7,921 bases of DNA from Bacteroidales bacterium (lineage in GTDB: Bacteria > Bacteroidota > Bacteroidia > Bacteroidales > WCHB1-69), in the NCBI GenBank assembly GCA_016285615.1, contig JAEERB010000109.1, positions 1 through 7,921 of the forward strand. The letters run 5' to 3'. Positions 159 through 6,505 of the stretch are shown piece by piece; within the stretch, counting starts at the first letter, position 1; every line of letters starts with the position of its first letter. A program made the position numbers and the translations under genes. The notes beneath the pieces were generated by a model, which was not told the origin of the DNA, searched no databases, and worked only from the letters and a program-made list of their open reading frames with translations.

Positions 159-428
159 TTAAATGATAGCGTAGATGTCGCTTTCTTTCATGATCATCAG
201 CTTCTCGCCGTCGATCTCGATCTCGGTGCCGCTGTACTTGCCGTAGAGGACTTGGTCGCCCACCTTGACGGTCATCTCATGGTCTTTGGTGCCCTTGCCA
301 ACGGCGAGGACTTCGCCGCGCTGCGGTTTCTCCTTGGCGGTGTCGGGGATGATGATGCCGCTGGCGGTCTTCTGTTCAGCCTCGGCGGGACGCACGAGGA
401 CTCTGTCTGCTAAAGGTTTGATGTTCAT
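159..428 (-). CDS. groES: GroES, 10-kDa co-chaperonin
   Basis: GroES is the heptameric lid of the GroEL folding chamber in the cytoplasm. The 89-residue product is the normal length for Bacteroidota GroES. It starts MNIKPLADRVLVRP, the classic Cpn10 start, and has the mobile loop around residues 16-32 (EQKTASGIIIPDTAKEKP) that contacts GroEL. The KVGDQVLYGKYSGTEIEIDGE segment near residues 55-75 and the end KESDIYAII are also typical. groEL starts 136 bases downstream on the same strand. Upstream lies a 199-base region with a sigma-54-like promoter and a nested inverted repeat, which suggests transcription separate from the exported-protein operon. The first 24 codons and the 6 bases before the start are perfectly duplicated at 6428-6505. 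Confidence 0.97.
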   Translation of the reverse strand: MNIKPLADRVLVRPAEAEQKTASGIIIPDTAKEKPQRGEVLAVGKGTKDHEMTVKVGDQVLYGKYSGTEIEIDGEKLMIMKESDIYAII

Positions 429-434
429 AGTACT
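357..434 (-). repeat. 78-bp direct repeat, copy A (5' end of intact groES)
   Basis: Positions 357-434 are identical, base for base, to 6428-6505, in the same orientation. The copy covers groES codons 1-24 plus 6 bases upstream of the ATG. Identity stops abruptly at both ends: the base before is T here and A in the other copy, and the base after is T here and A there. The copies are 6,071 bases apart. This is the functional, in-place copy. Confidence 0.97.
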
Positions 435-498
435 TTATTTTTTATTTGTTTTACTTCGTTCGGTGTGCCGTGCTTCAGCGCGGCTGCAACCATTATTA

Positions 499-515
499 TC
501 AACAACCGTGCCAAA
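499..515 (-). promoter_or_regulatory. Candidate sigma-54 (-24/-12) promoter for groES
   Basis: The minus strand from 515 reads TTTGGCAC, five bases (GGTTG), then TTGA. The sigma-54 consensus is TGGCAC, five bases, TTGC, so the -24 box and the spacing are perfect. The -12 box matches three of four bases; the missing C is a conserved one, which lowers confidence. Transcription would start near 488, about 60 bases before the groES ATG. The inverted repeat centred at 585 lies about 100 bases upstream of that start, the usual place for a sigma-54 activator site. No canonical Bacteroidota housekeeping promoter was obvious here, but such promoters are weakly conserved. The -24 box overlaps a small palindrome, TGCCA-AA-TGGCA, at 509-520. 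Confidence 0.42.
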
Positions 516-563
516 TGGCATGGATGCGACCGAAAGGGAGCAACTTGCCACTTTTAACTGCCA

Positions 564-606
564 GCGACTGCCACCCGCTGACAAATTGTCAGCCGATGGC
601 AGTCGC
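564..606. promoter_or_regulatory. Nested inverted repeat upstream of groES: possible activator site or hairpin
   Basis: The outer arms, 564-573 (GCGACTGCCA) and 597-606 (TGGCAGTCGC), are perfect 10-base inverted repeats. Inside them 578-583 (CTGACA) and 587-592 (TGTCAG) form a second perfect pair around AAT. The ACTGCCA motif is also repeated at 557-563, ten bases from 567-573, so binding sites may be phased on one face of the helix. The repeat lies 21 bases past the stop of the lipoprotein gene (628) and 136 bases before groES. Two readings are possible: a regulator-binding site for the sigma-54-like promoter, or the hairpin of a terminator for the upstream operon. No clear T-run follows on either strand, so the terminator reading is weaker. 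The CIRCE operator typical of many groES genes is not present. Confidence 0.7.
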
Positions 607-627
607 CGGCTTCAGTCGTACTGTCGG

Positions 628-4307: not shown

Positions 4308-5204
4308 CTATATTTTAACAAGTTGTTTGTAAATAATCCCATTGTCAGAAATAATTCTAACTATTACGATACCTCGTGGAATTGATTGTATATCAATATA
4401 TTTTTTAACATTGTCACATGATAGAAGTGTGTTTCCTTGTAAATTAAAAATTGTGATATTGTGGATGTCGTTTGCTTCAATATTGATATAATTATACGCA
4501 GGATTGGGATATATTTTAATATTATTCTTTGCAGTTCCCTCTACTCCCAACCGGTATGCACTCCAGCAGTTTCCCGTATCAATGTCCGATAGGTTATTGT
4601 TTCTGTATGTCAACGTGTCATCATGGAAGATACATATCACCGTACTGTACAACCCTAAGTTCACACGTCCAAAGAACGTGCTTGCGCCGACACTTTCAAT
4701 AAAGAAGAATTGATAATATCCATCATTGAATGCAATAACTTTTCTTCCTAACGAATCCATAAACACATCATGTACCACATATATTCCGAAGCCCCTATTG
4801 TCACGATAATAAAAAGTGTCACCAATATTAAGCGACAGGTTGACTATTAGATCATCTCCATTCTCAGTAAGCCCATTACGAACCCACAACTTACCCTCGA
4901 TTGTATCTTCGCGAACAAAACCGCTAAGAGAGCTATCAATACCTGACTCAAAATATGTTTGTGGAGCAGTGGCCATAACACGATGAACCTCCATTTTTTT
5001 ATAGTTCATACCAGAAATAATAGTGTCTCCACGTATCAAGTATCTATAATTCTGACCATATACATCATAATTCATATCTTCAACATGCCATTCCGTGCTT
5101 TCGCTGCCAAAGAACGAGCTGTAGCCTCTGGTAGCGGTGTCCTGCGCTGTGAGGCATCCCGCCGACAGCAACAGTGCGCCTACTATCATGATAATCTTCT
5201 TCAT
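4308..5204 (-). CDS. T9SS-sorted exported protein (copy 2 of a tandem pair)
   Basis: The 298-residue product starts with a signal peptide (MKKIIMIVGALLLSAGCLTAQ, likely cut near residue 20). It ends with a type A T9SS sorting domain at about 229-298: IKIYPNPAYNYINI, ITIFNLQGN, IQSIPRGIVIVRI and a terminal KQLVKI. T9SS domains direct cargo across the outer membrane, where they are usually removed and the cargo attached to the surface or released. The mature body (about 28-225) is paralogous to the neighbour at 5214-6083, sharing FFGSEST, GDTII-G, REDTI-GKLWV, NLSLNIGD and SLGRK. I do not recognise a catalytic motif. An AGGAG ribosome-binding site at 5211-5215 overlaps the stop of the upstream gene, and only 2 bases separate this stop from the protease ATG. 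SAGC near residue 16 resembles a lipobox but lacks the usual Leu at -3. Confidence 0.88.
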   Translation of the reverse strand: MKKIIMIVGALLLSAGCLTAQDTATRGYSSFFGSESTEWHVEDMNYDVYGQNYRYLIRGDTIISGMNYKKMEVHRVMATAPQTYFESGIDSSLSGFVREDTIEGKLWVRNGLTENGDDLIVNLSLNIGDTFYYRDNRGFGIYVVHDVFMDSLGRKVIAFNDGYYQFFFIESVGASTFFGRVNLGLYSTVICIFHDDTLTYRNNNLSDIDTGNCWSAYRLGVEGTAKNNIKIYPNPAYNYINIEANDIHNITIFNLQGNTLLSCDNVKKYIDIQSIPRGIVIVRIISDNGIIYKQLVKI

Positions 5205-5210
5205 ACTTTT

Positions 5211-5215
5211 CTCCT
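5211..5215 (-). promoter_or_regulatory. AGGAG ribosome-binding site overlapping an upstream stop
   Basis: On the minus strand AGGAG ends six bases before the ATG at 5204 and overlaps the TAG stop (5214-5216) of the upstream paralog. This fixes the start of the 298-residue gene and implies translational coupling. It stands out because most genes in this window have no clear Shine-Dalgarno sequence, as is normal for Bacteroidota. Confidence 0.7.
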
Positions 5216-6083
5216 ATTTCTTTATTATCTTTTTGTACATATTTTTGTCGTTGGCTTTAATAATAGCAATATACATCCCATCTGGTATACTGCCCATATC
5301 GATTTCCCTTTCTATAGTCTCAATAATCAATCGACCTTTCATGTCATATATCTGCAAAAGCTGCAATCTGGGTATATCCACTACTAATTTCTTATGGAAA
5401 GGATTTGGGTAGATGGCATGATCATCAGCGTTTATATCTTCTATATCTAAACGAGGTCTGACTCTGCAAGAATCGCGTATTATACTCCCGTTATCACCAT
5501 CAATTGATGTGATAGTTGTTGCGTATACATGGGAATTATCCTGGAATACGCATATTAGATAAGACATTATCTGGCCTGCAGAAAAAAAATCATTCCACAT
5601 TAGCTCTGCCCCGATCCCTTCTTTCATGTAAAAACTCGTTGAGCCAGGTTTTACTAAATGTATTGTTTTTCTGCCGTCTGAATCATAATATACAGAATCC
5701 ACGATATACCATCCTCTGAAACCTATGTCAAAACTGTCACCAACAGATAGAGACATGTTTACCACCAATTCTTCACTATCCTGATATCTCCATTTTACCC
5801 ACAACTTTCCAAATATAGTATCTTCACGAGCTAACCCAGTATTGCTACTTTGATGCACTTTTTTATATGCGGTTCCGTTGATGACGGTATCACCCGAAAA
5901 CGTGAATGTTCTATCAATAGGTCCAATATCATACATTTCAACGGCACAATTCCACACCGTGCTCTCGCTGCCGAAGAAGGAGCGGTATCCCCGTGTCGTT
6001 GTGTCCTGCGTCGGGCTGTCCTGTGCCGTGAGGCAGCCCGCTGTCAACAACAGTGCGCCTATTATCATGATAATCTTTTTCAT
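5214..6083 (-). CDS. T9SS-sorted exported protein (copy 1 of a tandem pair)
   Basis: The 289-residue product has nearly the same signal peptide as its neighbour (MKKIIMIIGALLLTAGCLTAQ). It then has an inserted SPTQDTT stretch before RGY-SFFGSEST. The C-terminal T9SS type A sorting domain covers about residues 222-289, with AIYPNPFHKKLVVDI, LLQIYDMKGRLI, MGSIPDGMYIAII and a terminal KKIIKK. The shared body motifs (GDTVINGTAYKK, REDTIFGKLWV, VNMSLSVGDSF, DSDGRK) show that it arose with the gene at 4308-5204 by tandem duplication and has diverged strongly since. There is no recognisable enzyme motif, so the role is unknown. A purine-rich AAGGAAAGGG lies just before the start. The gap to the upstream remnant is 15 bases and the gap to the downstream copy is 9. 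Confidence 0.88.
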   Translation of the reverse strand: MKKIIMIIGALLLTAGCLTAQDSPTQDTTTRGYRSFFGSESTVWNCAVEMYDIGPIDRTFTFSGDTVINGTAYKKVHQSSNTGLAREDTIFGKLWVKWRYQDSEELVVNMSLSVGDSFDIGFRGWYIVDSVYYDSDGRKTIHLVKPGSTSFYMKEGIGAELMWNDFFSAGQIMSYLICVFQDNSHVYATTITSIDGDNGSIIRDSCRVRPRLDIEDINADDHAIYPNPFHKKLVVDIPRLQLLQIYDMKGRLIIETIEREIDMGSIPDGMYIAIIKANDKNMYKKIIKK

Positions 6084-6098
6084 AGCTTTACCCTTTCC

Positions 6099-6427
6099 TT
6101 ATTTTGTAAGTTTCATCTGCTTTGTGTCAATAATCTGCCCGTCCACCACGAGCGAATAGAAATACATACCTGCTGCCAGTGTGCCGCCGCTCACTATCAC
6201 AGTTCCATGGCCGTACTGCTTTGTCATCCTGTCCATCTGGTATTCGCGCAGGGCGGCGAACTGTTCTGCGTTCTCCACGCGGTAGAAGGCCACGGTCTTC
6301 TCGTCGTGCACGGCCATGGCGCGCCAGAGGGGCACCTCGTCGCGCTTCACGCGGCGGGCCGGCTCGTCGATGTCGCCCAGCCAGCTGGTGACGCCCTCCG
6401 TGGCGCGGATGTCCATCTCCTCTTTCA
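6099..6427 (-). pseudogene. 5'-truncated paralog of the 7557-7921 gene, with T9SS-like C-terminus
   Basis: The readable part runs RLKEEMDIRATEGVTSW... to TKQMKLTK. Its first 69 residues match the product of 7557-7921 at about 42 positions (LKEE-DIR, EGVTSW-GDID-PA, WRAMAVH, AFYR). The match starts exactly where the groES copy ends, at 6427/6428, so everything encoded upstream in the paralog is missing. The tail (VIVSGGTLAAGMYFYSLVVDGQ...) is the end of a T9SS-type sorting domain, but without the N-terminal signal peptide the protein could not be exported. The original frame is open up to a stop at 6447-6449. An ATG at 6414-6416 could give a 105-residue protein; it lies 8 bases after the TGA that ends the groES fragment, with AAGAGGAG between, so coupled re-initiation is possible. 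I treat it as a pseudogene; the family is not recognised. Confidence 0.75.
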
Positions 6428-6505
6428 GCCGCTGGCGGTCTTCTGTTCAGCCTCGGCGGGACGCACGAGGACTCTGTCTGCTAAAGGTTTGATGTTCATA
6501 GTACT
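6428..6505 (-). repeat. 78-bp direct repeat, copy B: displaced groES 5' fragment
   Basis: This is a perfect copy of 357-434 and carries groES codons 1-24 from the ATG at 6497-6499. The reading frame then meets TGA at 6425-6427, inside the neighbouring truncated gene, so only a 24-residue peptide (MNIKPLADRVLVRP...TASG) could be made. Only 6 bases upstream of the ATG are included, so neither the groES promoter nor the nested inverted repeat was copied. Identity with no substitution implies a recent event or ongoing gene conversion. No transposase, integrase or terminal inverted repeat accompanies it. Confidence 0.95.

What the first reader, a model, noticed from the sequence alone, without database searches (positions are those of the whole stretch)
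357..6505. Perfect 78-bp direct repeats of the groES 5' end bound a 6-kb block of exported-protein genes
Positions 357-434 and 6428-6505 are identical and in the same orientation, 6,071 bases apart. The block between them holds the groES promoter region, a lipoprotein, an M6-like protease, two T9SS cargo genes and a truncated gene. Recombination between the repeats would excise the block and leave groES intact but behind the sequence at 6506 onward, changing its control. Inserted segments that carry a copy of the target gene's end are known for integrative elements, but no integrase is present here. A duplication with later insertion, or an excisable surface-gene cassette, are alternatives.
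Basis: partly seen in the sequence, partly recalled or inferred. Interest (0 to 1): 0.8.

Follow-up and report, generated by a model that had tools for sequence, protein, structure and literature searches.

The report
groES-fragment scar joining two operons
The repeated start of the groES gene is most likely a scar left when two versions of a surface-protein operon were stacked side by side; it does not look like a mobile cassette, and cutting the block out would strip groES of what looks like its own promoter.

Summary
In detail: 357-434 and 6428-6505 are identical, same strand. Another assembly, G001, has the same layout. The right-hand copy is 24 groES codons plus a stop, without promoter. 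Exact matches to relatives tile its junctions: X1 of G023 to 6434, groES of G170 at 6428-6505, the lipoprotein gene of G167 from 6505; that gene lies directly beside intact groES in G167 and G111. X1 and groES share 7 bases (CAGCGGC) at the join; about 156-172 bp, with the groES hairpin and promoter-like element, were lost on the other side. Two alleles of a variable surface operon, each ending at groES, now form one tight gene row (gaps 2-24 nt). The 8 ORFs searched held no recombinase. The intact groES control elements (500-610) lie inside the block, so excision would remove them. Identity does not date the event: 54 bp of this groES end are identical in 17 of 120 genus genomes; the duplicate was found in 1 of 120.

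The parts
159..428 (-). intact groES (89 aa)
   Evidence: Cpn10 PF00166, E 6.2e-34
357..434 (-). left repeat: groES codons 1-24 plus 6 bp of leader
500..513 (-). TGGCACGGTTGTTG, sigma-54-like -24/-12 element upstream of groES
   Evidence: pattern found in 41 of 41 loci upstream of groES; function inferred, cf. PMC9723704 passages
560..610 (-). strong hairpin (dyad core 578-592) between lipo1 and the groES element
   Evidence: inverted repeat I1; 552-622 folds at -48.5 kcal/mol, z -9.2; core in 35 of 41 loci; not listed by the simple terminator scan
628..1794 (-). lipo1, lipoprotein-like protein; allele A cargo
   Evidence: no Pfam family; homologue next to groES in G001 (99% aa), G023 (69%), G160 (67%)
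1798..4305 (-). M6-protease-like protein, allele A cargo
   Evidence: TIGR03296 below cut-off; homologues in G001 (70% aa) and G023 (58% aa) at the same place
4308..5204 (-). T9SS cargo gene a
   Evidence: PF18962, TIGR04183
5214..6083 (-). T9SS cargo gene b
   Evidence: PF18962, TIGR04183
6099..6416 (-). X1': C-terminal part of X1 without its N-terminal (signal) half, fused to a T9SS-type end
   Evidence: X1 intact in G023 (L050:8201-8629) with a separate S74/T9SS-type gene behind it
6428..6434 (-). junction 1: 7 bp CAGCGGC shared by X1 and groES
   Evidence: exact matches: G023 X1 6331-6434, groES from 6428
6425..6499 (-). truncated groES: 24 codons then TGA; no promoter-like element or dyad core in the 330 bp upstream
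6428..6505 (-). right repeat
6505..6505 (-). junction 2: lipo2 3' untranslated end joined to the groES leader, 1 bp overlap
   Evidence: G167 exact 6505-6883, G170 exact 6428-6505; G167 and G111 have 177 and 161 bp from this point to the groES ATG
6524..7537 (-). lipo2, FISUMP/Lcl_C-like lipoprotein; allele B cargo
   Evidence: Lcl_C E 9.3e-7 and TIGR02145 E 1.3e-5, both below cut-off; directly upstream of groES in G111, G167
7557..7919 (-). X2 (cut by the window end), allele B's X protein
   Evidence: 87.5% aa to the groES-proximal X of G167

Best explanation
The repeats are the scar of an illegitimate recombination that stacked two alleles of a variable surface-protein operon next to groES. 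Allele A (groES-lipo1-M6-T9-X1, as in G023) was joined at 7 bp of microhomology inside X1 to codon 24 of the groES of allele B (groES-lipo2-X2, as in G167). This cut off the N-terminal half of X1 and left 78 bp of allele B's groES. The stretch between lipo2 and that groES remnant, carrying the hairpin and the promoter-like element, was then lost, so both operons now form one tight gene row. Most likely route (inferred): a piece of allele A DNA entered by homologous exchange through the nearly invariant groES end on one side and an illegitimate end-join on the other, followed by the deletion. Shown: the layout, both parental arrangements in relatives, both junctions, the missing stretch, the presence in a second assembly. 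Inferred: order of events, uptake route, co-transcription, and that the block is not mobile.
For: Repeat confirmed. Same layout in G001. X1 DNA 99.0% identical over 205 bp through the junction in G023 and G160, where the frame is open (143 and 144 aa). lipo2 3' end 99.5-99.7% over 395 bp in G167 and G111, directly upstream of groES. Exact-match tiling 6331-6434, 6428-6505, 6505-6883. An overlap of 7 bp or more occurs in 137 of 102,250 groES/X1 breakpoint pairs. Gaps from X2 to lipo1 are 19, 24, 8, 15, 9, 2, 3 nt against 199 nt between lipo1 and groES. The TGA form was found in 1 of 120 genus genomes (up to 3 mismatches; one search agrees among the matches it lists). Patches of 98-100% to several species across the window fit frequent exchange here.
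Against: Two steps are needed (join, then deletion); one template-switch event would explain the same junctions. The leader before ATG in G167 and G111 differs from the window's, so the true allele B is not among the loci read: its groES end resembles G170, its lipo2 end G167. Window and G001 are identical around the right junction (6401-6900), so persistence over long time is not shown. Incomplete MAGs: 15 of 120 genomes gave no match at all. No reads, no RNA data.
Confidence: 0.72

Rival explanations
1. Tandem duplication: the segment from groES codon 24 to X1 was duplicated by the same 7-bp join, and the second copy was later replaced by allele B sequence through homologous exchange.
For: The join (X1 3' part next to groES 5' part, same strand) is what a tandem duplication makes; the locus is mosaic. 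Microhomology-selected tandem duplication is experimentally known (PMC11111574, abstract).
Against: No second copy of lipo1, M6 or T9 upstream of the fragment in the window (1.4 kb available) or in G001's contig (about 2.5 kb available); the next genes there are lipo2 and X2.
Confidence: 0.14
2. One-step complex event: replication template switching copied 78 bp of groES into a new joint between lipo2's end and X1.
For: Explains the loss of the hairpin and promoter-like element and the short insert in one event; the joins have overlaps of 7 and 1 bp.
Against: Needs A and B alleles in one cell anyway; no independent sign of it.
Confidence: 0.1
3. Excisable or phase-variable surface-gene cassette bounded by the 78-bp repeats.
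For: Perfect direct repeats that homologous recombination could use; surface genes between them.
Against: No recombinase in the 8 ORFs searched; excision would remove the groES hairpin and promoter-like element; the identity is explained by groES conservation.
Confidence: 0.02
4. Assembly artefact in a mixed metagenome.
For: The window matches several species in patches of 98-100%, which chimeric contigs can also produce. Independence of the two assemblies was not testable.
Against: G001 has the same junctions although 35 of the 36 100-bp tiles from 2701 to 6300 are only 46-76% identical; the X1' protein cluster P0245 (G001's form) stands for 18 contigs; a collapse at the 78-bp repeat would continue into groES codon 25, not into X1.
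Confidence: 0.02

Closest known systems
Homology-facilitated illegitimate recombination and merodiploidy in natural transformation (PMC3784515, passages; the term itself seen in the search listing)
   Same: DNA is added beside a resident gene and leaves direct repeats; pairing at a repeated or conserved segment starts the event
   Different: Transformation is not shown here; only 78 bp are repeated; the pneumococcal duplications are about 100-900 kb and use long repeats
Microhomology-mediated tandem duplication that activates a transferred gene (PMC11111574, abstract)
   Same: Short microhomology (9 bp there, 7 bp here) joins two units in the same orientation
   Different: The A block is single-copy here; only the groES end is repeated
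Integrative elements that carry a copy of the target gene's end (recalled, no call)
   Same: A copy of a conserved gene's end borders an inserted block
   Different: No integrase in the ORFs searched; the intact gene's control elements lie on the block side, so excision would damage it

Membership tests
Integrative element using a gene end as attachment site | integrase or other site-specific recombinase | tested here: not met
   8 window ORFs against Pfam, none matches a recombinase; other ORFs were not searched
Integrative element using a gene end as attachment site | target gene is left functional after excision | tested here: not met
   from the sequence, excision would leave groES behind lipo2's 3' end without its hairpin and promoter-like element; the effect on groES is inferred
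Integrative element using a gene end as attachment site | circular form or empty site in the same strain | not testable with these tools
   no reads
Phase-variable surface cassette | recombinase plus recombination sites at the borders | tested here: not met
   borders are direct repeats of groES coding sequence and no inverted-repeat pair sits at them; no recombinase in the 8 ORFs searched
Microhomology-mediated illegitimate recombination | short overlap of both parents at the junction | tested here: met
   CAGCGGC, 7 bp; the second junction has only 1 bp
Plain tandem duplication | second copy of the whole segment | tested here: not met
   only 78 bp repeated; lipo2 and X2 are diverged allele B genes; upstream sequence is limited
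Homology-facilitated illegitimate recombination | one end homologous, other end microhomology | tested here: inconclusive
   groES is near-identical among many relatives, so a homologous end cannot be located
sigma-54-dependent groESL promoter | -24/-12 element (consensus recalled as TGGCAC-N5-TTGC) | tested here: inconclusive
   pattern TGGCA[CT][AG]N4[TA]TG in 41 of 41 loci, but most leaders read TTGA rather than TTGC; transcription not tested

The most novel reading that the evidence does not exclude
The groES fragment has been put to use: the start region of a presumably strongly expressed gene became a translational starter (24-codon leader, stop, 8 nt, next ATG) inside a newly fused operon, so that allele B's sigma-factor unit now drives allele A's surface proteins. 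Separate X1' protein clusters that start at the same methionine but carry different tails suggest that this arrangement circulates among strains.
Probability: 0.12. Interest if true: 0.55.

Novelty: new member of a known kind. Interest (0 to 1): 0.36.

Why it matters
It is a clean natural case, with both parental arrangements found in relatives, of how a variable surface operon next to a nearly invariant chaperonin gene can grow by stacking alleles and merge two operons. It also shows a pitfall: perfect repeats of a strongly conserved gene look recent and mobile but need not be. The array of X and variable surface genes beside groES, seen upstream of groES in 24 of 41 loci, is a good site to measure exchange between species of uncultured Bacteroidales.

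Tried and rejected
Excisable cassette and integrative element: rejected because no recombinase was found in the 8 ORFs searched and because the groES control elements lie in the block. Recent duplication inferred from 78/78 identity: rejected, because groES codons 2-24 are identical in DNA in 7 of the 22 relatives printed and 54 bp are identical in 17 of 120 genomes. Duplication of the distal unit of the same array: rejected, because X1 and X2 both resemble the groES-proximal X of relatives more than the distal one. Junction in viral contigs: 0 matches. Fold of X (mean pLDDT 89.5) against the PDB: no match at E 0.001 or better; Pfam gave nothing below E 0.1 for X. Paper searches, listings only: truncated or duplicated groES (8 of 9 papers listed) gave only a cyanobacterial chaperonin gene-duplication paper by title, otherwise unrelated; sigma factor plus variable Bacteroidales surface lipoproteins (3 papers) gave general reviews and an unrelated study; RUG377 gave no paper naming it among the 5 of 93 listed. 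A search for microhomology and transformation led to PMC11111574.
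Full report
Observation. The 78-bp perfect direct repeat is real: 357-434 and 6428-6505, same strand, spacing 6071. The left copy is the 5' end of intact groES (159-428, Cpn10 E 6.2e-34). The right copy is a closed frame of 24 codons ending in TGA, MNIKPLADRVLVRPAEAEQKTASG*, with the next ATG 8 nt on.

Not a one-off of this assembly. The window's own assembly is not held. In 100-bp tiles window and G001 are 100% identical at 301-400, 801-2500 and 6401-6900, but 35 of the 36 tiles from 2701 to 6300 are only 46-76% identical. 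So the two contigs are different sequences that share the junction; whether they derive from independent reads could not be tested. Of 120 genomes of the genus searched with a pattern for the fragment plus its TGA (up to 3 mismatches), 17 match and only G001 has the TGA form; the other 17 places are intact groES. A protein query on the same 120 agrees among the matches listed; 15 of 120 gave no match and the list was cut.

Both parental arrangements exist. X1 DNA is 99.0% identical over 205 bp through the junction in both. Allele B, groES-lipo2, is in G111 (contig ends in lipo2) and G167 (followed by X2); 395 bp of the lipo2 end are 99.7% and 99.5% identical.

Junctions. Exact matches tile the scar: G023 X1 covers 6331-6434, G170 groES covers 6428-6505, G167 lipo2 covers 6505-6883. 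Overlaps are 7 bp (CAGCGGC) and 1 bp. Over all 102,250 breakpoint pairs between groES and X1, 137 give an overlap of 7 or more. At the second junction, G167 and G111 have 177 and 161 bp between the same point and the groES ATG, holding the hairpin, a sigma-54-like element and the leader; the window keeps only GTACT of it, so about 156-172 bp are gone relative to them.

Consequences. From X2 to lipo1 the gaps are 19, 24, 8, 15, 9, 2 and 3 nt; only between lipo1 and groES is there a long gap of 199 nt, with a very stable hairpin (-48.5 kcal/mol, z -9.2) and TGGCACGGTTGTTG at 500-513. The pattern TGGCA[CT][AG]N4[TA]TG lies upstream of groES in 41 of 41 loci examined and the dyad core in 35 of 41; one locus had only 95 bases upstream. 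The dyad was found only at groES in 4 of 4 genomes searched. The simple terminator scan did not list the hairpin, so whether it ends transcription or binds a regulator is open. In Flavobacterium psychrophilum the groESL start site carries a predicted sigma-54-type site (PMC9723704, passages). Both elements are absent upstream of the truncated copy. Hence two operons that each ended at groES now appear as one (inferred), and recombination between the 78-bp repeats would strip groES of these elements. That argues against a cassette that excises.

Why the identity is perfect. Of 22 relatives that I printed (43 groES sequences, window included, were extracted), 7 are identical to the window in DNA over codons 2-24 and 20 keep 10-12 of 12 fourfold sites; L057 and L058 keep 3 of 10. 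54 bp are identical in 17 of 120 genomes. Identity therefore says little about age. The shared AGTACT leader is rarer: G170 matches the window's groES end and leader over 157 bp, and G073 also has AGTACT.

The locus. In 24 of 41 loci with intact groES an X gene lies upstream on the same strand, in 2 only a lipoprotein gene, in 15 neither (several loci are short). X has 705 relatives at E 0.001 or better in the protein database and no Pfam family. In G070 an ORF of the unit matches ECF-type sigma factors; the small protein next to it sits in the anti-sigma position but matches no anti-sigma family. typA/BipA lies on the far side in 3 of the 6 loci listed (Pfam-tested for one); in G023's locus other genes stand there. 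The window matches several species in patches of 98-100%, consistent with exchange between species, though chimeric assembly can look similar. ComEC-type competence proteins are present in 6 of 6 genomes searched (one with a stop inside), but the family also rings in 10 of 14 control genomes, so this is weak support for transformation.

Fate of X1'. In the window X1' is fused to the T9SS-type end of the S74-like gene; in G001 the S74-like gene is still separate. Protein clusters P0240, P0244, P0245, P0247 and P0272 all start at MDIRATEG with different tails; P0245, G001's form, stands for 18 contigs. Whether those other than G001's carry the groES fragment could not be seen, and some starts may be annotation choices.

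Verdict. A rearrangement scar that stacked two alleles and merged two gene rows; ordinary in mechanism, unusually well documented by the parental arrangements in relatives, not a mobile cassette.

Noticed in passing
window 500-592 and 41 relatives' loci: A sigma-54-like element upstream of groES in 41 of 41 loci, and a dyad core in 35 of 41, in many of them 37 or 47 bp further upstream, as if helically phased.
   Followed up: partly
window 733-2589 against L042: 1857 bp exactly identical to G001, then a drop to 65-69% in the following 100-bp tiles inside the M6-like gene.
   Followed up: partly
window 7080-7218: 139 bp identical to G070 inside lipo2, between segments that best match other species: fine-scale mosaic.
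   Followed up: no
window 6099-6416: X1' reads into the T9SS-type end of the S74-like gene; P0238 and P0239 (177 aa) are longer X proteins with the same fused end.
   Followed up: partly
L048, L053, L098: Two X/lipoprotein units lie between groES and typA, a possible surface-gene hot spot; the sigma factor was Pfam-tested for one ORF only.
   Followed up: partly
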